The translations under genes were made by a program, and so were the position numbers. Below are positions 15,116 to 26,795 of a DNA stretch of 35,922 nt, one piece after another (the first letter of the stretch is position 1; every line of letters begins with the position of its first letter). The notes beneath the pieces are model-generated. The model worked only from the letters and a program-made list of their open reading frames with translations, ran no database searches and was not told the origin of the DNA. Source of the stretch: Nitrospira sp. (GTDB lineage: Bacteria; Nitrospirota; Nitrospiria; Nitrospirales; Nitrospiraceae); NCBI GenBank assembly GCA_024330945.1, contig JANDJJ010000013.1, positions 1-35,922 of the forward strand, written 5' to 3'.

Positions 15116-16486
15116 ATGATGATGGAACAGCAGCCGCGGCGAAGATCTTGGGTAGTGTGGCCGATGATTGCCATCGCGCTCCTCGGCGGGATTCTGATCG
15201 GCAAGGGGTGGGAGCGGACCGGCTACGCCGGTGAAACTTACGAAGAGCTCAAGACGTTTTCGGAAGTGCTGAATCAAATTCAGCGCCATTATGTCGATGA
15301 GACGAAGCCGAAGGAGTTGATCCAAGGCGCCATTCGCGGCATGCTCGCGACGCTCGACCCGCATTCCGCCTATATGACGCCCGAAATGTACAAGGAGATG
15401 CAGGTCGAGACCAAGGGGGAATTCGGAGGAGTGGGGATCCAGATCGGCGTGAAAGACAATCGTTTGGCCGTGATCGCGCCCATTGAAGGAACTCCCGCGC
15501 ATCGGGCGGGGATCAAGGCCGGTGATTTCATCGTCAAGGTCAATGATGAGACGACGAAAGATCTTTCCTTGATGGACGCGGTCCAAAAGATGCGGGGACC
15601 GAAAGGGAGTAAGGTGAGTTTGACGGTCCAACGCGAGGGCACGCCCGAACCCCTCGTGTTTACGTTGGTTCGGGATACGATCAAGATCGAAAGCGTCAAG
15701 TCGAAAGTCATCGAAAACAATTTGGGGTACGTGCGGTTGACGCAATTCCAAGAATCGACGGGCAAAGATTTGGCCAAGGCCATCAAACAATTCAAAGAGC
15801 AGAAGGTCCAAGGCGTCATCATTGATTTACGGAACAATCCCGGCGGGCTGTTGACCGCCGCGGTCGACGTCTCCGAGCAATTTCTGCCGAGCGGGAAACT
15901 GATCGTCTACACCAAGAGCCGCGACGGGAAAAAAGACGAATGGTTCGCCAAGGCCAAAGATCAGTTGGACAATCTTCCTCTGATCGTGTTGGTCAACGAG
16001 GGGTCGGCCAGCGCCTCGGAGATCGTGGCCGGCGCCCTTCAAGATTGGGGACGGGCGGTCGTCGTCGGAACCACCTCGTTCGGCAAAGGATCGGTCCAGA
16101 CCATTCTGGCGCTCGGTGACGGGTCGGGACTGCGTCTGACGACGGCCAAGTATTACACGCCGAAGGGACGGACCATCCAATCGACGGGGATCACGCCGGA
16201 TATCATGGTGAAGGCGCCGCAGCCGGTCGTCGCCAAGGCGACCGAGAACCACGCTGGTGAGAAAGATTCCGAGGGCAAGGGCGGAAAGTCTTCGGCCGGC
16301 AAGGATCATCAGGCGTCTCCCACGGGGAAGTCGACGGATGAAGCCGGCGCCAAAACCGGAACGCCTCCGCCGGCCGTAACGGCGGAGGCAGGGGGCGATC
16401 TTTCGCCCGAAGAAGATGTTCAATTGCAAAAGGCCGTAGAGTTGCTCAAAACTTGGAAGATATTCAAGGATCTCAAGCCCTCTTAA
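15116..16486 (+). CDS. ctpA: Carboxy-terminal processing protease (S41A family)
   Basis: 456 residues. A single N-terminal membrane segment (about 11-28) anchors or exports it. A PDZ domain follows (GVGIQIGVKDNRLAVIAPIEG, HRAGIKAGDFIVKVND), then the S41 protease core: RLTQFQ, IIDLRNNPGGLL, the nucleophile region NEGSASASEIVAGALQD near 296 and the general-base Lys in SFGKGSVQT near 324. The catalytic Ser/Lys dyad appears intact. A low-complexity Lys/Gly/Ser/Ala/Pro-rich segment lies between 375 and 430 before a short helical end. CtpA trims C-termini of envelope proteins, in several bacteria including peptidoglycan hydrolases, which fits the position after envC. Confidence 0.95.
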   Translation: MMMEQQPRRRSWVVWPMIAIALLGGILIGKGWERTGYAGETYEELKTFSEVLNQIQRHYVDETKPKELIQGAIRGMLATLDPHSAYMTPEMYKEMQVETKGEFGGVGIQIGVKDNRLAVIAPIEGTPAHRAGIKAGDFIVKVNDETTKDLSLMDAVQKMRGPKGSKVSLTVQREGTPEPLVFTLVRDTIKIESVKSKVIENNLGYVRLTQFQESTGKDLAKAIKQFKEQKVQGVIIDLRNNPGGLLTAAVDVSEQFLPSGKLIVYTKSRDGKKDEWFAKAKDQLDNLPLIVLVNEGSASASEIVAGALQDWGRAVVVGTTSFGKGSVQTILALGDGSGLRLTTAKYYTPKGRTIQSTGITPDIMVKAPQPVVAKATENHAGEKDSEGKGGKSSAGKDHQASPTGKSTDEAGAKTGTPPPAVTAEAGGDLSPEEDVQLQKAVELLKTWKIFKDLKPS

Positions 16487-18527: not shown

Positions 18528-18785
18528 ATGGATGAAACGATTAGAATTCAGGTGAACGGCGAGATGAAGGACTGGCGCGGCGGCATGACGGTGGCTGATT
18601 TGTTGCGGGAGCTGGAGATCGCGACCGACCGCGTGGCGGTAGAGGTCAACCTCGAAATTTTGGACCGTACAACGTTCGCGGAATATCGACTTCGGGACGG
18701 CGATCGCGTGGAAATCATGAGTTTTATCGGTGGCGGCACGTTGTGCATCGGTGAGGGGACGTCAATGATTGCCTTGCATGGGTAA
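18528..18785 (+). CDS. thiS: Sulfur carrier protein ThiS with a C-terminal extension
   Basis: 85 residues from the ATG at 18528; an ATG nine bases earlier (18519) overlaps the likely -10 box. The beta-grasp ThiS fold is recognisable: IRIQVNGEMKDW, MTVADLLRELEI, RVAVEVNLEIL and RDGDRVEIMSFIGGG. In normal ThiS the final Gly-Gly is the C-terminus, adenylated by ThiF and converted to thiocarboxylate. Here the glycines are residues 68-70 and 15 more residues follow (TLCIGEGTSMIALHG) before the TAA. Either the extension is removed, as in QbsE-like carriers, or the protein is not activated in the usual way. thiG follows 63 bases downstream. No thiF is in the window. Confidence 0.85.
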   Translation: MDETIRIQVNGEMKDWRGGMTVADLLRELEIATDRVAVEVNLEILDRTTFAEYRLRDGDRVEIMSFIGGGTLCIGEGTSMIALHG

Positions 18786-18848: not shown

Positions 18849-19622
18849 ATGACGGACGATCGGTTGATCATCGCAGGGCGTGAGTTCAAGTCACGGCTGT
18901 GGGTGGGAACGGGCAAGTACAAAAGTTTCGCCGAAACCCAAAAGGCCATTGAGGCGTCGGGGGCCGATGTCGTCACCGTAGCGGTACGCCGAGTCAATAT
19001 CACCGATCGATCGAAAGAAAACTTGCTCGACTACATTGATCCCAAGAAATACACGATTCTTCCCAATACGGCCGGTTGCTACACGGTGGAAGATGCGGTG
19101 CGGTATTCCCGTCTTGCCCGCGCCGCCGGCGTCTCCGATTTGGTGAAACTTGAGGTGATCGGCGACGAAAAAACGTTGTTTCCCGATACGGCGGGCTTGA
19201 TCGAAGCGGCGAGAATTCTGATCAAAGAAGGGTTCATCGTACTGCCTTACACGAACGATGACCCGATCGTCGCCAAGAAACTGGTCGATATCGGATGTCC
19301 GGCGGTGATGCCGCTGGCTGCGCCGATCGGATCGGGACTGGGGATCAGAAATCCCTACAACTTGAAGATCCTGATGGAGAGTGTCACCGTCCCGGTCATC
19401 GTCGATGCCGGCGTGGGAACAGCGTCCGACGCGGCGTTGGCCATGGAATACGGGGCCGATGCGGTATTGATGAATACGGCCATCGCCGGCGCGCGGGATC
19501 CCATTGCCATGGCGGAAGCCATGAAATACGCGGTCTGGGCCGGCCGGTTGGCGTACAAGGCCGGCCGAATTCCCAAGAAACTCTACGCGACGGCGAGCAG
19601 TCCGATAGAGGGGATGCTCTAA
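18849..19622 (+). CDS. thiG: Thiazole synthase
   Basis: 257 residues with a GAGGGGGG ribosome site just before the ATG. ThiG features: [44 protein letters not shown], the Schiff-base Lys at residue 100 in [10 protein letters not shown], and the phosphate-binding glycine segments [10 protein letters not shown] and [11 protein letters not shown]. ThiG condenses 1-deoxy-D-xylulose 5-phosphate, dehydroglycine (or iminoacetate) and ThiS-thiocarboxylate sulfur into the thiazole phosphate. It lies between thiS and a thiE/tenI gene. Confidence 0.97.
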
Positions 19623-19730: not shown

Positions 19731-20393
19731 ATGCGGCCTGTTGATTTCCGCCTGCTGTTGGTCACGGATCGAACCCAAACACGGGGGCGTCCCCTCCTAG
19801 AGCTTCTTCGCCAAGCCGTCGATGCGGGGCTGCCGGCCATTCAGCTTCGCGAGCGAGATTTGCCGACACGGGAACTGATTCAGTTGGGGCGCGAGATCGG
19901 ATCGCTTGCGAAACACGGGACTGTGCCATTGATCGTCAACGATCGGGTCGATCTGATGTTGGCGATGAATCTGGACGGCGTCCATCTGCGTGCGAACAGC
20001 CTCCCGCTCTCGGCCGTTCGCCGGCTGGTCGGCGCCGGTTGCCTGATAGGGATTTCGACGCATTCGCTCGCAGAGGTGCACGCTGCCAATCGGGAGAAGG
20101 CCGACTATATCGTGTTCGGGCCGGTCTTTGATACGCCGTCGAAACGGCGGTTCGGAGCTCCCGTCGGATTGGAGCGATTGGCCGAAGCCTGCTGGCTCTC
20201 AACGGTTCCGGTGTTTGCCATCGGAGGAATCACCCGTGCATCGGTGCCCGCTGTTCGTCGAGCCGGCGCGTACGGCGTCGCCGTCATCGGGGCCATTCTC
20301 GGTTCCGACGACGTCGCCGCCGCGACGCGCGACCTGTTGGCGGCGCTGGATGCGTCATCCGATTCCGATGTTCGCACGATGCCGCGCGCGTAG
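19731..20393 (+). CDS. ThiE/TenI-family protein (thiamine phosphate synthase or thiazole tautomerase)
   Basis: 220 residues. The (beta/alpha)8 family motifs are AIQLRERDLP, PLIVNDRVDLMLA, DGVHLRANSLP, IGISTHSLAEVHAA, DYIVFGPVFDTPSK and VFAIGGIT. ThiE normally has a GQxD-type sequence after DGVH; here it is RANSLP, which is closer to TenI (LGxxSLP). The THS motif places a His where TenI uses one for thiazole tautomerisation. It could therefore be TenI aromatising the ThiG product, or a divergent ThiE. Position after thiG fits either. There is no clear ribosome site. A predicted proteasome-cluster promoter follows immediately. Confidence 0.85.
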   Translation: MRPVDFRLLLVTDRTQTRGRPLLELLRQAVDAGLPAIQLRERDLPTRELIQLGREIGSLAKHGTVPLIVNDRVDLMLAMNLDGVHLRANSLPLSAVRRLVGAGCLIGISTHSLAEVHAANREKADYIVFGPVFDTPSKRRFGAPVGLERLAEACWLSTVPVFAIGGITRASVPAVRRAGAYGVAVIGAILGSDDVAAATRDLLAALDASSDSDVRTMPRA

Positions 20394-20496: not shown

Positions 20497-22266
20497 ATGG
20501 GAGAAAGCAAAAATCAACAGACCCGGCTCCGGTCCCTCCGCGATTCCGTCAAGAAAATTACCAAGCGGTTGTCAGAGAGGAATGCGGGCATGATTCACAA
20601 AAACGACGAGCACGCTGGAGAAACCGACAGGCTTCGCGAGCAAATTCAGTCGATGGAAGAAGAAATCCGTCGATTGTATCAATCGCGCTACCAGCTCGAG
20701 CAGGTGAACAAGCAGAATGAACGGCTGGTCGCGGCGCTTCAAGAGGCGAAGACGCAAATTGAGACGCTGCGTGCCGAAGTCGACAAGCTGACGGCTCCTC
20801 CTTCGTCGTACGCCATTTTCTCGAGCCTCAATGAGGACGGGACGGGAAACGTATTCGTGTCCGGCCGAAAAATGAAAGTCAGCATTCATCCCTCCATCAG
20901 CGGTCCTCAATTGAGGAAGGGACAGGAAGTCGTGCTGAACGAAGCGCTGAACGTCATCGAGGCGAAGAGCTTCGACAGACAGGGTGAGGTGGTGCGGCTC
21001 AAGGACGTGTTGGAGGGAGGGCGCGCGCTCGTGACGTTGCACTTCGACGAAGAGAAGGTCGTTGAGTTGGGAGATCCGTTGCTGGCCGATCGATTGAGCG
21101 TCGGCGATCATCTCTTGTACGATCCTCGTTCCGGATACGTGATCGAAAAACTGCCGAAATCGGAAGCGGAGGAATTGGTGCTGGAAGAGGTTCCCGACGT
21201 CGATTACTCACGTATCGGTGGACTTCAGAAAGAGCTGGAACAAGTACGCGACGCGGTCGAACTGCCGTTCCTTTATCCGGATCTGTTCGCCGAGTATAAA
21301 CTGAGCGCTCCGAAAGGCGTCTTGTTGTATGGGCCGCCCGGCTGCGGCAAAACGCTCATCGCCAAGGCCGTCGCCAATTCGATCGCCAAAAAACTCGGCC
21401 ACCGCACGGGCAAGGAGGTCCGTAGCTATTTTCTCCACGTCAAAGGCCCAGAATTGCTCAACAAGTACGTCGGCGAGTCCGAACGACAAGTGCGGGAGGT
21501 CTTCAAAAAGGCGAAGGAGCGCGCGGAAGACGGTCATCCGGTGATCGTCTTTTTCGACGAAATGGACGCGTTGTTCAGGACAAGAGGGAGTGGCATCTCG
21601 TCCGACATCGAATCGACGATCGTTCCGCAGTTTTTATCGGAGATAGACGGAGTGGAGCGTCTGCGCAATGTGATCGTCATCGGAGCCAGCAATCGGCAGG
21701 ATTTGATCGATCCCGCGGTGCTGCGGGCTGGACGGCTGGACGTCAAAGTCAAAGTCGGGCGTCCGGACGCCGAAGCCGCACGGGATATTTTCTCAAAGTA
21801 CCTGTCGCCGGATCTGCCGTTCGACCAGAGCGAGTTGGACCAGCATGGGGGTGACCGCCGGACGTTCGTGGAACGATTGACCGCCCGGACCGTCGAGGCC
21901 ATGTATGCCGCCAGCGAGGAGAACAAGTTCATCGAGGTGACGTACGCCAGCGGTGAAAAAGAAGTGCTGTATTTCAAGGATTTCGCCAGCGGGGCCTTGA
22001 TTGAAGGAATCGTGTCACGCGCCAAGAAATTCGCCGTGAAGCGGGCCATTGCGCGAGAAGGGAGCGGTCTCCGGTTGGATGATATGTTGCGCGCCATCCG
22101 TGAGGAATTTAAAGAGCACGAAGATCTTCCCAATACGACCAATCCGGATGATTGGGCGAAAATCGCCGGGAAGAAGGGCGAAAAGATCGTTCACATTAGA
22201 ACGATCAGCGGCGGACCCGGCGAGTCTCGCCAGATCGAAACCGTGACCACCGGTCATTACCTCTGA
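20497..22266 (+). CDS. arc: Proteasome-associated AAA ATPase (ARC/Mpa)
   Basis: 589 residues from 20497; an ATG at 20590 preceded by GAGAGG is a plausible shorter start (558 residues). After a basic N-terminus comes a coiled coil (about 40-95), which in Mpa binds the Pup tag. OB domains follow ([37 protein letters not shown]). The AAA domain has Walker A GPPGCGKT near 279, Walker [13 protein letters not shown] near 350 and the arginine-finger region [16 protein letters not shown]. The final residues GHYL resemble the GQYL docking tail with which Mpa opens the 20S gate. ARC unfolds tagged proteins and threads them into PrcBA. dop begins seven bases after the stop. Confidence 0.95.
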
Positions 22267-22273
22267 CGTCTCC

Positions 22274-23773
22274 ATGCGGAAAGCCATCCCGACGACTCGT
22301 CCGCGCGTGCTTGGCACCGAAACGGAATTCGGCATCACGGCGAAGGATTCGTCCATTTCCGATCCCGTCTCGAGTTCTATCGCCGTAATCGGGCATTATA
22401 GGGGAATTCCCGCTCCTGCGGCGATTTGGGATTACGAACACGAAAATCCGCTCTTGGACGCCAGAGGGTTCGAAGTCGAGGGAGAGCGGGAACGTCCCAA
22501 TCCGGATTACAACCGACAACTGAACAAAGTGCTGGCCAACGGCGGGCGACTGTATGTGGACGGCGCCCATCCTGAATACTCCACGCCGGAATGTTCGGGG
22601 GCTCGCGAAGTCGTGGCGTTTGAACGGGCGGGAGAGCGGATTCTGGCCCAAAGTCTCCAGGAAATGGCGAGGGTGGTGGGGCGGGATCTGTACGTTCTGT
22701 ACAAGAACAATTCGGACGGCAAGGGCAACAGCTACGGCTATCATGAGAATTATCTGGTGGCCAGGACCGTGCCGTTCGAGAACATCGTCCGATCGTTGGT
22801 GCCTTTCCTGGTGACGAGGCCGATCTTTGCCGGAGCCGGGAAGGCTGGAGCGGAAAATCAGACAAGCCCCGCCGAGTACCAGATTTCTCAGCGCGCGGAT
22901 TTTTTTGAATGTTTGGTCGATCTCAACACGATGGTCAAGCGACCGATCATCAACACCCGCGACGAGCCGCACGCCGATCACGCAAAGTATCGGCGGTTTC
23001 ACGTCATTGTCGGCGACGCCAACATGGCCGAAGTCTCCACCTTTCTCAAGGTCGGGACCTTGAGCATCGTGCTCGATCTTTTGGAAGCGGGAGCGACGCT
23101 GCCGGTCATCGAATTGGACGAGCCGGTTCGGGCGTTCCGGCAAGTGTCGCGCGATCTGGAGATGAAGGAAACGATCAAGTTGGCCGGGGGCGGTCCGACG
23201 ACGGCCGTGGCCGTGCAGCGCCTCTACCTCCAGGCCGCCAAGGACTTTTATGCCGAAGAGGGCTGCGACGATGAAACGCGGGACATTCTCGCGCGGTGGG
23301 AGGAGGTGCTCGACAAGCTCGAGCGGGATCCGCGTCTGCTGGTGCGGGAATTGGATTGGGTGGCCAAGCGCCACCTCATTGAATCCTATATGGATCGGAA
23401 GCGATGCGGCTGGGACGACCCTCGAACGAAATTGATGGATCTTCAGTACCACGACATTCGTCCGGACCGCGGGTTGTTTTATACCCTGGAGCGCGGCGGT
23501 CATGTTGACCGTATCGTCCATGATGAGGATATCCGACGGGCCGAATTGACGCCCCCCCCGAACACGAGAGCGTACTTTCGGGGGCGCTGCGCGAGCAAGT
23601 TCGCCAGGTCGCTCTACGGCGCGAGCTGGACATCACTTTTGTTCGACGTGGGGAATGGGACCATCAAGCGAGTGCCGTTGATGGACCCGCATCGCGGCAC
23701 CCAGGCGTTGACCGGCGGTTTGTTGGACCTTGTTGATTCGGTCGATGCCTTGATTGAAAAGTTGAAGGCCTGA
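22274..23773 (+). CDS. dop: Depupylase/deamidase Dop
   Basis: 499 residues. The glutamine-synthetase-like fold starts with LGTETEFGIT (metal-binding Glu residues). The segment IAVIGHYRGIPAP plus the following acidic stretch is the Dop loop, absent from PafA, and separates this gene from the ligase at 25419. The catalytic Asp sits in RLYVDGAHPEYSTPE at about residue 96. Other signatures are LYKNNSDGKGNSYGYHENYL and KRPIINTRDEPHAD. Dop hydrolyses the isopeptide bond between Pup and substrate and deamidates C-terminal Gln of Pup where needed. It sits directly after arc and ends only 20 bases before prcB. Confidence 0.95.
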   Translation: MRKAIPTTRPRVLGTETEFGITAKDSSISDPVSSSIAVIGHYRGIPAPAAIWDYEHENPLLDARGFEVEGERERPNPDYNRQLNKVLANGGRLYVDGAHPEYSTPECSGAREVVAFERAGERILAQSLQEMARVVGRDLYVLYKNNSDGKGNSYGYHENYLVARTVPFENIVRSLVPFLVTRPIFAGAGKAGAENQTSPAEYQISQRADFFECLVDLNTMVKRPIINTRDEPHADHAKYRRFHVIVGDANMAEVSTFLKVGTLSIVLDLLEAGATLPVIELDEPVRAFRQVSRDLEMKETIKLAGGGPTTAVAVQRLYLQAAKDFYAEEGCDDETRDILARWEEVLDKLERDPRLLVRELDWVAKRHLIESYMDRKRCGWDDPRTKLMDLQYHDIRPDRGLFYTLERGGHVDRIVHDEDIRRAELTPPPNTRAYFRGRCASKFARSLYGASWTSLLFDVGNGTIKRVPLMDPHRGTQALTGGLLDLVDSVDALIEKLKA

Positions 23774-23793
23774 GCCGATCCCCGTTCGTTTCG

Positions 23794-24633
23794 ATGAATG
23801 ACATGAAGTTGCCCTATTTCCCTGATTTTGAGACCTCCAGTTTTTTTGATTTCCTTGCCGAACACCGGCCTGGTCTTCTACCGGGGGCAGGAAGAAACGC
23901 ATCCGCCGGCCGTACCATGTCACCGGAGCAGACGGCTCAAGGAGCGCACCTGACGGTCCCCCACGCCACCACGGTCTTGGCCGTCAAGTATCGTGACGGC
24001 GTGGTCATCGCGGGAGACCGACGGGCAACGGAGGGTTTTCAGATCGCCGACCGACGCATTGAAAAAGTTTTCAAGATCGATGACTGGTCAGCCATGGCGA
24101 TTGCAGGCGCCGCCGGACCCTGCATCGAAATGGCCAAATTGTTCCAGACGGAGCTGGAACATTACGAAAAATTGGAAGGCGTGCCGTTGTCGTGCGAAGG
24201 AAAAGCAAACAAACTCGGCCAGATGGTCAAGGCCAATCTTCCCCTGGCGTTCCAAGGACTTATTGTCATGCCCCTTTTTGCGGGATACGACGTAAAGCGC
24301 GGCGAAGGGCGCATTTTCAAATATGATCTCGCCGGCGGCCGGTACGAAGAGTCCGATTATCACGCGATCGGGTCTGGCGGGAAAGACGCCCGCAACACCA
24401 TGCGCGAACATTTTCGAAAAAACATGGCTGAGCCGGATGCGCTCGGCCTGGCGCTGACGGCCCTGTATAACGCCGCGGACGACGACGTGGGTACCGGAGG
24501 GCCGGATCTCGTGCGAGGCATTTATCCAACGGCCAAGTTCGTGACGGCCCAAGGAATCGTCGATGTGTCCGACGAGAAGGTCCGCTCGGTGTACGATGGG
24601 CTGATCGCCGCGCGCCGTTTGAGGGAGGCGTAA
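23794..24633 (+). CDS. prcB: Proteasome beta subunit
   Basis: 279 residues. The catalytic Thr is predicted at residue 59 in PHATTVLAVKYRDG, giving a 58-residue propeptide and a 221-residue mature subunit. The propeptide contains SSFFDFLAEHRPGLLPG, strikingly like the SSFxDFLRxxxPELLP box of actinobacterial PrcB propeptides. VVIAGDRRATEG carries the active-site Asp, with the catalytic Lys downstream in IEKVFKI. PrcB forms the inner beta rings that cut unfolded substrates. An ATG at 23803 is an alternative start. The ribosome site is weak and dop stops just upstream, suggesting translational coupling. Confidence 0.96.
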   Translation: MNDMKLPYFPDFETSSFFDFLAEHRPGLLPGAGRNASAGRTMSPEQTAQGAHLTVPHATTVLAVKYRDGVVIAGDRRATEGFQIADRRIEKVFKIDDWSAMAIAGAAGPCIEMAKLFQTELEHYEKLEGVPLSCEGKANKLGQMVKANLPLAFQGLIVMPLFAGYDVKRGEGRIFKYDLAGGRYEESDYHAIGSGGKDARNTMREHFRKNMAEPDALGLALTALYNAADDDVGTGGPDLVRGIYPTAKFVTAQGIVDVSDEKVRSVYDGLIAARRLREA

Positions 24634-24636
24634 TCC

Positions 24637-25323
24637 ATGCCGCTGCCGTATTACGTATCCCCCGAACAGATGATGCAGGACAAGGCCGAGTATGCCAAGA
24701 AGGGCATCGCGAGGGGCCGGTCGATCATCGCCATGGAATACGAAGACGGTATCCTGCTGACGGCGGACAACCCCAGCGCGTCTCTGCACAAGATCTCGGA
24801 GGTGTACGACAATATCGCCTTTGCCGGAGCCGGAAAATACAGCGAGTTTGAAAACTTGCGGAAGGCCGGCATCAGACACGCCGATCTCAAGGGGTTTATG
24901 TACAGCCGGGAGGACGTGACCGGCCGGTCGCTCGCGAACGGCTATTCACAAAGTCTCGGGACGATTTTCAGCCAGGAGATCAAACCTCTCGAAGTGGAAA
25001 TTTTGGTCGTGCAAGTCGGCGTCGACGGCCATCCCAACGAGATCTATCGTATTTCGTTCGACGGCAGCATCATCGACGAAAAAAATTTTGCGGTCATCGG
25101 GGGAAGAGCGGAGGCCGTTCAAGCGGTTTTGAAAGACAAGATCTCGACCGAGCCAGCCGCGTTGGGAGCCGCCCTGTCGCTCTGCGTGTCGGCGCTCGAA
25201 CAGACGGCTAATCAGAAATTGCCCCATGAAGGTCTGGAAGTCGCAGTATTGGACCGCAACCGCCTCGGTCGAAAATTTCGTCGGTTGTCGATCGCCGACG
25301 TTCGACGGCTGCTCTCCGATTAG
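24637..25323 (+). CDS. prcA: Proteasome alpha subunit
   Basis: 228 residues; GGGAGG lies eight bases before the ATG and prcB stops three bases upstream. The N-terminus PYYVSPEQMMQDKAEYAKKGIARGRS matches the gating N-terminal helix region of bacterial alpha subunits, followed by NPSASLHKISEVYDNIAFAG, RREDVTGR-like SREDVTGRSLANGY and GTIFSQEIKPLEVE. There is no N-terminal catalytic Thr, as expected. Alpha rings cap the core and provide the pockets for the ARC C-terminal tail. Confidence 0.96.
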   Translation: MPLPYYVSPEQMMQDKAEYAKKGIARGRSIIAMEYEDGILLTADNPSASLHKISEVYDNIAFAGAGKYSEFENLRKAGIRHADLKGFMYSREDVTGRSLANGYSQSLGTIFSQEIKPLEVEILVVQVGVDGHPNEIYRISFDGSIIDEKNFAVIGGRAEAVQAVLKDKISTEPAALGAALSLCVSALEQTANQKLPHEGLEVAVLDRNRLGRKFRRLSIADVRRLLSD

Positions 25324-25418
25324 CGCCCCTCCCTCTCACGCCGTTCCGTACCTTCGCTTGCGGATCAAAGACGGGCCGTGTAATCTGATTTTATCAACCC
25401 ATGGCCGGCACAGGTCCG

Positions 25419-26795
25419 ATGAAGCAAAGAATTTTCGGTCTCGAAAACGAGTACGGTCTCATCTTTTCCCCCAACGGCCGAATCTATTTGCCGATGGAAA
25501 AGGTCTTGGGCTACATCTTCGAGGGGTTGATTCCGAATAGTTGGCCGTCGAACGCCTTTCTCGTCAACGGCGCAAGATTTTATCAGGACACCGGATGCCA
25601 TCCGGAATACTCCACGCCCGAATGCGACAACGTTCTCGATCTGGTGACCCACGACAAGGCCGGCGAGCGGTTGCTGGAAGCCTGCCTGCCTGCCGCCGAA
25701 GAGCGGCTTCGCGAGGAAGGGTTGTCAGGCGAAATTTACATTTTCAAGAACAACACTGATTCGCTGGGCAACACCTACGGGTGTCACGAGAATTTTCTCA
25801 TGAGGCGGGATGTCGATTTCTGGAAAGTCACGGAGCAATTGATTCCGTTTTTCGTAACGAGGCAGGTGTTCAGCGGAGCGGGAAAGGTCCTCAAGGTGTC
25901 CGGCAAACCCCAGTATTTCATTTCCCAACGGGCGCAGCACATTCACGAAAAGACCTCCTCGTCCACGACGTCGTCCCGCAGCATCATCAACACACGCGAC
26001 GAGCCGCACGCCGACGCGGAACGTTACCGTCGACTGCACATCATCGTGGGAGATTCCAACATGTCGGAATTCGCCACGTATCTCAAGGTGGGAACGGCGG
26101 CGCTGGTCCTGTCGATGATTGAGGAGGGCTATCTGGTGCATGGGGTGGAGCTGGAGGACCCCGTGAAGGCGATTCGCGAAATCGCGAGGGACCCCACACT
26201 CAAGAAAAAAGTCCGGCTTGACGATGCCCGCTATATGACCGCCATTGAGATCCAGCGGGTCTATTTGGAGCGCGCGCGGCAGTATCTGGACCAGGAAGAA
26301 CATGATGCGGCGCTCGACGACGTGTATGCCAAGTGGGAGGCGGTGCTCCGTCAGTTGGAAGAGGATCCCATGCAGTTGGCGCATCAAATCGACTGGGTGA
26401 CCAAGAAGCACCTGATTCAATCGTATGTAGACAAGAAAGAATGCGGATGGGATGATCCCCGCGTCTTGCTGTTGGATTTGCAATTTCACGATGTGAAGCG
26501 CACAAGAGGGTTGTACTACCTGTTGGAATCGCGCGGGTTGGTCGAGCGGATCGTGCAGGAAGACGCCGTGCAACGAGCCATGTCCATACCTCCGCAGACG
26601 ACCAGAGCCAAGGTGCGAGGGGATTTCATTCGGTTCGCAAGGGCGAAAAACCGTTCCTACACGGTCGATTGGACCTATTTGAAATTGAACGGTTATTGGG
26701 AAGAGACGATTCTGTGCATGGATCCGTTCAGCGCCGTGAATCGGCGGGTCGAGGAATTGCTGTCGCAGATGCCGGGAGGGCGGTTTCACCGATGA
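25419..26795 (+). CDS. pafA: Pup/UBact-protein ligase PafA
   Basis: 458 residues from the ATG at 25419 (MKQRIFGLENEYGLIF), which has AGG upstream and matches the family start; an ATG at 25401 is possible. The carboxylate-amine ligase features are GLENEYG (metal Glu residues), RFYQDTGCHPEYSTPE with the catalytic Asp near residue 57, FKNNTDSLGNTYGCHENFL and SIINTRDEPHADAERY. It lacks the Dop loop, identifying it as the ligase. PafA uses ATP to join the C-terminal Glu of the tag to substrate lysines. It follows prcA after about 95 bases and overlaps the M23 gene by four. Confidence 0.95.
   Translation: MKQRIFGLENEYGLIFSPNGRIYLPMEKVLGYIFEGLIPNSWPSNAFLVNGARFYQDTGCHPEYSTPECDNVLDLVTHDKAGERLLEACLPAAEERLREEGLSGEIYIFKNNTDSLGNTYGCHENFLMRRDVDFWKVTEQLIPFFVTRQVFSGAGKVLKVSGKPQYFISQRAQHIHEKTSSSTTSSRSIINTRDEPHADAERYRRLHIIVGDSNMSEFATYLKVGTAALVLSMIEEGYLVHGVELEDPVKAIREIARDPTLKKKVRLDDARYMTAIEIQRVYLERARQYLDQEEHDAALDDVYAKWEAVLRQLEEDPMQLAHQIDWVTKKHLIQSYVDKKECGWDDPRVLLLDLQFHDVKRTRGLYYLLESRGLVERIVQEDAVQRAMSIPPQTTRAKVRGDFIRFARAKNRSYTVDWTYLKLNGYWEETILCMDPFSAVNRRVEELLSQMPGGRFHR

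What the first reader, a model, noticed from the sequence alone, without database searches (positions are those of the whole stretch)
18528..18785. ThiS carries 15 residues after its Gly-Gly terminus
ThiS must end in Gly-Gly for adenylation and thiocarboxylate formation. Here the frame runs on after residues 68-70 (GGG) for 15 codons to a TAA. A processing protease such as the JAMM enzyme used for QbsE, or a lineage-specific form of ThiS, could explain it. It is also a Ub-fold protein next to a proteasome cluster lacking its tag gene, but ThiG directly downstream makes a thiamine role far more likely; any link to protein tagging is speculation.
Basis: partly seen in the sequence, partly recalled or inferred. 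Interest (0 to 1): 0.55.

Follow-up and report, generated by a model that had tools for sequence, protein, structure and literature searches.

The report
Thiamine sulfur carrier with disposable tail
In Nitrospira and its relatives the small protein that delivers sulfur for vitamin B1 is made with an ever-changing tail behind its working end, so it very probably has to be cut to size before it works, most likely by a JAMM protease that nearly all of these genomes carry.

Summary
ThiS at 18528-18785 runs 15 codons past the canonical Gly-Gly-Gly end (residues 68-70) to a TAA. It is not a sequencing error: 50 of 50 window-type thiS loci in the order carry a tail of 1-21 residues, as do 72 of 79 thiG-anchored thiS loci in named genomes, including complete Nitrospira moscoviensis with 20 residues. 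The glycines are invariant while the tail is not: window and nearest relatives (ThiG 99%) differ by frame-shifting indels inside it. Best reading: a 'capped' sulfur carrier, cut after Gly70 before adenylation, most likely by the Prok-JAB/JAMM metalloprotease found over cut-off in 56 of 59 genomes, in the cluster that also holds the main E1 enzymes. Support: eight JAMM-less genomes of the phylum all stop at GGG; three apparent exceptions trace to assembly gaps; the residue after the cut is unusually small; in the window's own genome MoaD is fused to MoaE, a known JAMM substrate type. Capped carriers are known (QbsE, PtmS2), but a 2006 survey reported no JAB in the thiamine pathway. Cleavage is inferred, not shown. 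A protein-tagging role is not supported; 10 of 10 congeners searched have Pup.

The parts
18528..18737 (+). thiS core, 70 residues, ubiquitin-like (beta-grasp) sulfur carrier ending in FIGGG
   Evidence: TIGR01683 and PF02597 matches end at residue 70; AF2 model pLDDT about 86-94 over residues 1-60, best PDB matches all ThiS
18729..18737 (+). codons of Gly68-Gly69-Gly70, the canonical terminus; predicted cleavage just after 18737
   Evidence: Gly69 and Gly70 invariant, Gly68 at least 90% in 68 aligned ThiS; PDB ThiS chains end here
18738..18782 (+). 15-codon C-terminal cap TLCIGEGTSMIALHG
   Evidence: not conserved, frame-shifting indels against nearest relatives; low model confidence, pLDDT blocks of 46 from residue 71 on
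18783..18785 (+). stop codon TAA
18840..18847 (+). purine-rich stretch GAGGGGGG before the thiG start, probable ribosome-binding site
   Evidence: sequence; inference
18849..19622 (+). thiG, thiazole synthase
   Evidence: PF05690 E 1.2e-113
19731..20393 (+). thiE, thiamine phosphate synthase
   Evidence: PF02581 E 4.4e-56; TIGR00693 over cut-off

Best explanation
This is a working thiamine-pathway ThiS made as a capped precursor. A cytoplasmic protease, most likely the Prok-JAB/JAMM metalloprotease encoded with the MoeB-type E1 enzymes, cuts after Gly70 and frees the Gly-Gly-Gly carboxylate. An E1 (no dedicated ThiF was seen in Nitrospira) then adenylates it, it becomes a thiocarboxylate, and ThiG uses it. 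Because anything behind GGG is removed, the stop codon is free to drift, so the tail is a short, nearly neutral read-through of the thiS-thiG spacer with only its first residue constrained. Shown: the tail, its lineage-wide presence, its lack of conservation, invariant glycines, JAMM and E1 genes, MoaD-MoaE fusion. Inferred: cleavage, the identity of the protease, the order of steps.
For: (1) 50 of 50 window-type thiS in the order end FIGGG plus 1-21 residues. (2) Gly69, Gly70 invariant in 68 sequences, while tail length differs in 13 of 21 pairs whose cores are at least 95% identical; 1-nt and other indels in the tail against nearest relatives. (3) JAMM over cut-off in 56 of 59 genomes, the window's own included, and 139 of 148 genomes of the phylum; catalytic E...H-S-H-x7-S-xx-D in 30 of 30 JAMM loci read. 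(4) Eight genomes with no JAMM over cut-off and no sign of an assembly gap all end GGG*: 0 of 8 capped versus 33 of 72 with a strong JAMM outside Nitrospiria, Fisher p 0.011, not corrected for kinship. Three exceptions trace to assembly gaps: G134's contig starts inside the JAMM gene, G138's contig ends inside the gene that adjoins JAMM in its family, G076 lacks every E1. (5) First tail residue is A/G/S/T/C in 84 of 112 distinct tails; 29 of 41 core clusters at 65% identity versus 0.285 expected from the other frames, p 2.6e-8. (6) Other carriers also need cutting: MoaD-MoaE fusion in the window's genome, ThiS2 ending GGGR or fused to cysteine synthase, ThiS-ThiG fusions in G125 and G168. (7) Precedent: JAMM uncaps carriers (PMC6006322 passages) and cuts MoaD-MoaE (PMC8832034 passages).
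Against: No biochemical evidence. Presence of JAMM does not force a cap: 39 of 72 JAMM-positive genomes outside Nitrospiria stop at GGG, and two Nitrospirales loci do too (L123, L125). The JAMM sits beside a CysO that usually ends in a bare GG, so its main job could be releasing cysteine from CysO as for Mec+ (recalled), without touching ThiS. The tail is not wholly free: the in-frame stop lies nearer (median 2 codons) than stops in the other frames (10.5 and 12), so long tails seem disfavoured. The association is confounded by kinship.
Confidence: 0.72

Rival explanations
1. The tail is removed, but by another cytoplasmic protease or carboxypeptidase rather than by this JAMM; the JAMM serves only CysO and MoaD-MoaE.
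For: JAMM is not in the thi operon, and its neighbours are cysteine and homocysteine-type genes. JAMM-positive genomes often have uncapped ThiS.
Against: Absence of JAMM goes with absence of a cap in 8 of 8. The one processing protease in the window, a CtpA-like S41 peptidase (15116-16483), has an N-terminal membrane or signal segment, so it should act outside the cytoplasm.
Confidence: 0.15
2. ThiS here is not the sulfur donor of ThiG any more; ThiG takes sulfur from the second carrier (ThiS2) or free sulfide, and the capped ThiS is drifting.
For: A second ThiS-like carrier exists in most relatives.
Against: Core and Gly69-Gly70 stay invariant and thiS stays beside thiG while only the tail drifts; a dying gene would lose the glycines as well. 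ThiS2 itself ends GGGR, GGGA or GGGT in the standalone copies read, so it would also need trimming.
Confidence: 0.06
3. The tail does something: a degron, a regulatory cap or a translational coupler that lets ribosomes reach thiG.
For: In several lineages the tail frame runs over the ribosome-binding site and start of thiG (family f2; L097, L105), and short tails are favoured.
Against: No conserved peptide sequence or length; frame-shifts between nearest relatives. Coupling would concern the RNA and would not remove the need to expose GG.
Confidence: 0.05
4. Sequencing or assembly error, or a missed stop.
For: The window comes from a 205-contig draft.
Against: Tails in 50 of 50 loci of the order, from many assemblies, and in complete N. 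moscoviensis (L103).
Confidence: 0.01
5. ThiS is a Pup-like or ubiquitin-like protein tag for the neighbouring proteasome, matured and recycled by JAMM.
For: Ub fold, JAMM, E1 and proteasome genes all present.
Against: thiS-thiG-thiE gene order; Pup itself is in 17 of 19 genomes searched, including 10 of 10 same-genus relatives G001-G010. It was not found in G000, but in G005 and G006 it lies about 41 kb from thiS, beyond the end of this 35.9-kb contig.
Confidence: 0.01

Closest known systems
Capped sulfur carriers QbsE/QbsD (thioquinolobactin) and PtmS2/PtmS1 (thioplatensimycin)
   Same: ThiS/MoaD-family carrier with residues after its terminal glycines, and a JAMM protease in the genome that exposes GG (PMC6006322 passages: caps MV and C; QbsD named as the example)
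   Different: Those carriers serve siderophores or antibiotics, have one or two cap residues, and PtmS1/PtmS2 are neighbours. Here the carrier is the thiazole ThiS beside thiG, caps run to 38 residues in its order, vary freely, and JAMM is elsewhere in the genome
HcyS/HcyD/HcyF of Wolinella (methionine; details recalled, the paper seen only as a reference)
   Same: Extra C-terminal residue removed by a zinc protease before use (recalled)
   Different: Homocysteine pathway; the Nitrospira ThiS2 (ending GGGR, beside a cysteine synthase) resembles it more than the window's ThiS does
MoaD-MoaE fusion cut by DRJAMM in Deinococcus radiodurans
   Same: JAMM frees a carrier's C-terminal Gly from a linear fusion (PMC8832034 passages); the window's own genome has such a fusion
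   Different: Molybdenum cofactor; D. radiodurans ThiS itself ends GGG*
Canonical ThiS (E. coli, B. subtilis, T. thermophilus)
   Same: Fold, GG(G) terminus; partner ThiG
   Different: Ends at the glycine, no processing needed

Membership tests
ThiS (TIGR01683, thiamine sulfur carrier) | Sequence over the curated equivalog cut-off | tested here: met
   73.8 bits, cut-off 37.45
ThiS (TIGR01683, thiamine sulfur carrier) | Beta-grasp fold | tested here: met
   AF2 core pLDDT mostly above 86; the six best Foldseek matches are all ThiS
ThiS (TIGR01683, thiamine sulfur carrier) | Gene beside thiG | tested here: met
   thiG at 18849-19622
ThiS (TIGR01683, thiamine sulfur carrier) | Encoded protein ends in GG | tested here: not met
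   15 residues follow; met only after processing
ThiS (TIGR01683, thiamine sulfur carrier) | Adenylated, then thiocarboxylated, and donates sulfur to ThiG | not testable with these tools
   needs biochemistry
Capped sulfur carrier (QbsE/PtmS2 type) | ThiS/MoaD fold with residues beyond the conserved glycines | tested here: met
Capped sulfur carrier (QbsE/PtmS2 type) | JAMM protease with intact catalytic residues in the genome | tested here: met
   L036, Prok-JAB E 6.6e-21; HSHPHDPARPSVTD and upstream HECCG
Capped sulfur carrier (QbsE/PtmS2 type) | JAMM gene adjacent to the carrier gene | tested here: not met
   G000 JAMM on contig C24, thiS on C44; in relatives JAMM lies with ThiS2, CysO and the E1s
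Capped sulfur carrier (QbsE/PtmS2 type) | Protease removes the cap and exposes GG | not testable with these tools
   inferred
Pup/ubiquitin-like protein tag | No other tag gene available to the proteasome | tested here: not met
   Pup in 17 of 19 genomes, including 10 of 10 same-genus relatives; none found in G000 itself

The most novel reading that the evidence does not exclude
In Nitrospirota one general JAMM protease acts as a shared convertase for several ubiquitin-like sulfur carriers at once (thiamine ThiS, the ThiS2/cysteine-synthase carrier, MoaD in Moco synthesis, some CysO), so B1, Moco and cysteine synthesis all depend on proteolytic activation, as ubiquitin and SUMO precursors do in eukaryotes. 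The caps are then a neutral ratchet: once trimming exists, stop codons drift and genes fuse (ThiS-ThiG, ThiS-CysM, MoaD-MoaE), and the protease becomes hard to lose.
Probability: 0.45. Interest if true: 0.72.

Novelty: new variant of a known kind. Interest (0 to 1): 0.52.

Why it matters
The thiamine branch of prokaryotic ubiquitin-like sulfur transfer has been described as free of JAB/JAMM proteins (PMC1779556, passage). If a whole bacterial order makes ThiS only as a precursor, proteolytic maturation of ubiquitin-like carriers is part of core vitamin metabolism in a widespread group of nitrifiers. The freely drifting caps give natural data on JAMM specificity: more than a hundred different tails behind an invariant GGG, with a small residue preferred right after the cut. 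It also means an extended ThiS in these genomes should not be corrected as an annotation error. I found no description of capped thiamine ThiS or of Nitrospira ThiS maturation in the held library; subscription papers are largely not held.

Tried and rejected
Sequencing error: rejected by the lineage-wide tails. Tagging role: rejected, Pup present in relatives. CtpA-like S41 peptidase in the window as trimming enzyme: set aside because of its N-terminal membrane segment. Whether tail length is free of selection: not fully, the in-frame stop is nearer than off-frame stops. Controls from other phyla by whole-genome search: not possible, so only five plasmid-borne ThiS were read: S. meliloti, Nonomuraea, D. 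radiodurans and Paenibacillus stop at GG or GGG; Tistrella is a ThiS-ThiG fusion whose JAMM status was not tested. 38 plasmid records matched; five were opened. In one search, three genomes (G134, G138, G076) were left out of the 2x2 table as assembly gaps, three with only a weak JAB hit (G155, G197, G202, all uncapped) were left out of the JAMM-positive row, and six JAMM-positive genomes without thiG beside the matched gene were dropped (G105 tail 2, G064 1, G127 0, G091 0, G068 64, G077 1). Had G134, G138 and G076 been counted as JAMM-less, 3 of 11 would be capped. Four of the eight JAMM-less genomes (G061, G071, G080, G192, one family) have no thiG beside thiS.

Full report
Observation. The frame 18528-18785 encodes 85 residues ending SFIGGG-TLCIGEGTSMIALHG and a TAA. 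The ThiS profiles stop at residue 70 and ThiS chains of solved structures end at the matching position. thiG and thiE follow. The window is the whole of contig C44 of a 205-contig draft.

Not an error. A protein search of 59 genomes gave 50 window-type thiS matches (E at most 1e-15). All 50 were read and all carry a tail of 1-21 residues behind FIGGG; none stops at GG or GGG. A second set anchored on ThiG in named genomes gave 80 loci, 79 with thiS: 72 are capped, with lengths up to 38, and 7 stop at GGG (L123, L125, L159, L160, L162, L167, L170). Nitrospira moscoviensis, a complete genome, has 20 residues. The two sets overlap, since some loci come from the same assemblies.

The tail drifts, the glycines do not. 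In 68 aligned ThiS, Gly69 and Gly70 are invariant. The two nearest relatives (ThiG 99% identical) have tails of 35 and 30 residues where the window has 15; the DNA alignment shows one-base, two-base and six-base indels inside the tail region while the core has none against them. Among pairs with cores at least 95% identical, tail length differs in 13 of 21. In several lineages the tail is simply the frame running over the ribosome-binding site and start of thiG. The AF2 model gives a confident core and an unordered tail (pLDDT blocks of 46 from residue 71), and its best PDB matches are ThiS.

Two traces of selection remain. First, the in-frame stop lies closer to GGG than stops in the other two frames (medians 2, 10.5 and 12 over 108 loci with thiG), so long tails seem mildly disfavoured. 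Second, the first tail residue is Ala, Gly, Ser, Thr or Cys in 84 of 112 distinct tails, against 35 of 102 at the second position. With one member per cluster at 65% core identity it is 29 of 41, against 0.285 expected from the other frames of the same DNA (p 2.6e-8). A preference at the residue just behind the scissile bond is what a protease cutting after Gly70 would leave.

The protease. Prok-JAB (PF14464) is over cut-off in 56 of 59 genomes and 139 of 148 genomes across the phylum. In the window's genome it lies at C24:84-530, at a contig start. In relatives it closes a cluster ThiS2 - cysteine synthase - MoeB-type E1 - threonine-synthase-like - CysO - NIL - E1 - JAMM (NIL and threonine-synthase names are my reading of the sequences). 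The catalytic residues are present in 30 of 30 JAMM loci read. These two E1s are the only strong PF00899 matches in most relatives, so no dedicated ThiF was seen in Nitrospira; E1s and JAMM together look like a maturation hub.

Association test. Eight genomes have no JAMM over cut-off and no sign that an assembly gap explains it: G061, G071, G080, G192 (one family), G178, G188, G205 (one family; G205 is 86% complete) and G172. All eight ThiS end at GGG. Outside class Nitrospiria, 33 of 72 genomes with a strong JAMM are capped, Fisher p 0.011 without correction for kinship. Three genomes first looked like exceptions. G134 (cap AA): its contig begins inside the last 35 codons of the JAMM gene. 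G076: no E1 at all, so the cluster is probably missing from the draft. JAMM seems necessary for a cap, not sufficient.

Other carriers tell the same story. MoaD of the window's genome is fused in frame to MoaE (PF02597 plus PF02391); DRJAMM cuts such a fusion in Deinococcus (PMC8832034, passages). MoaD is capped SEGC in G100 and G076, and CysO is capped in G134 and G138; against this, G021 has MoaD-like carriers that end in a bare GG and CysO of G010 and G021 does too. The standalone ThiS2 copies read end GGGR, GGGA or GGGT, and in family f4 ThiS2 is fused to cysteine synthase. ThiS is fused to ThiG in G125 and G168.

Known background. Capped sulfur carriers needing a JAMM protease are described for QbsE and PtmS2/PtmS3 (PMC6006322, passages). 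[quoted passage not shown] QbsE, HcyS and Mec+ details beyond these passages are recalled. PMC6225789 and PMC5764234 were seen as passages. So the kind is known, and its use for the thiamine ThiS of a whole order, with freely drifting caps, appears new within the library searched.

Limits. Nothing here shows cleavage. The JAMM could serve only CysO and MoaD-MoaE while another enzyme trims ThiS. Genomes are mostly drafts, kinship is not corrected, and other phyla were sampled only through five plasmid records.

Noticed in passing
L253 (G000:C148), locus 151-861: MoaD fused in frame to MoaE in the window's own genome (PF02597 and PF02391 in one frame).
   Followed up: yes
L184 (G125:C24) and L224 (G168:C32); L273 (Tistrella mobilis plasmid pTM3): In-frame ThiS-ThiG fusions, apparently arisen separately in Nitrospirota and Alphaproteobacteria.
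   Followed up: partly
L066, L090, L091 (family f4): A second ThiS-like carrier fused in frame to a cysteine synthase (FYMGGGQ-...); elsewhere it is a separate gene ending GGGR, GGGA or GGGT.
   Followed up: partly
window 20497-26795: Proteasome cluster (Mpa-like ATPase, Dop and following genes) directly after thiE without Pup. Pup is in 10 of 10 same-genus relatives searched, but not found in G000; in G005 and G006 it is about 41 kb from thiS, so it may lie just off this contig.
   Followed up: partly
L266 (G134:C17) 1473-1766 and L267 (G138:C27): CysO-like carriers with caps (GG-EHQQRRDL and GG-RGWS), in a cluster with NIL-like and threonine-synthase-like genes.
   Followed up: partly
L303 (G061:C27): JAMM-less family f13 has a ThiF-like E1 with an N-terminal ubiquitin-like stretch, resembling the Campylobacter-type fusion of PMC1779556.
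   Followed up: no
L296 (G133:C52) 1876-2351: What looks like a RelE-type toxin-antitoxin pair lies between the E1 and JAMM genes (reading by eye, no search run).
   Followed up: no
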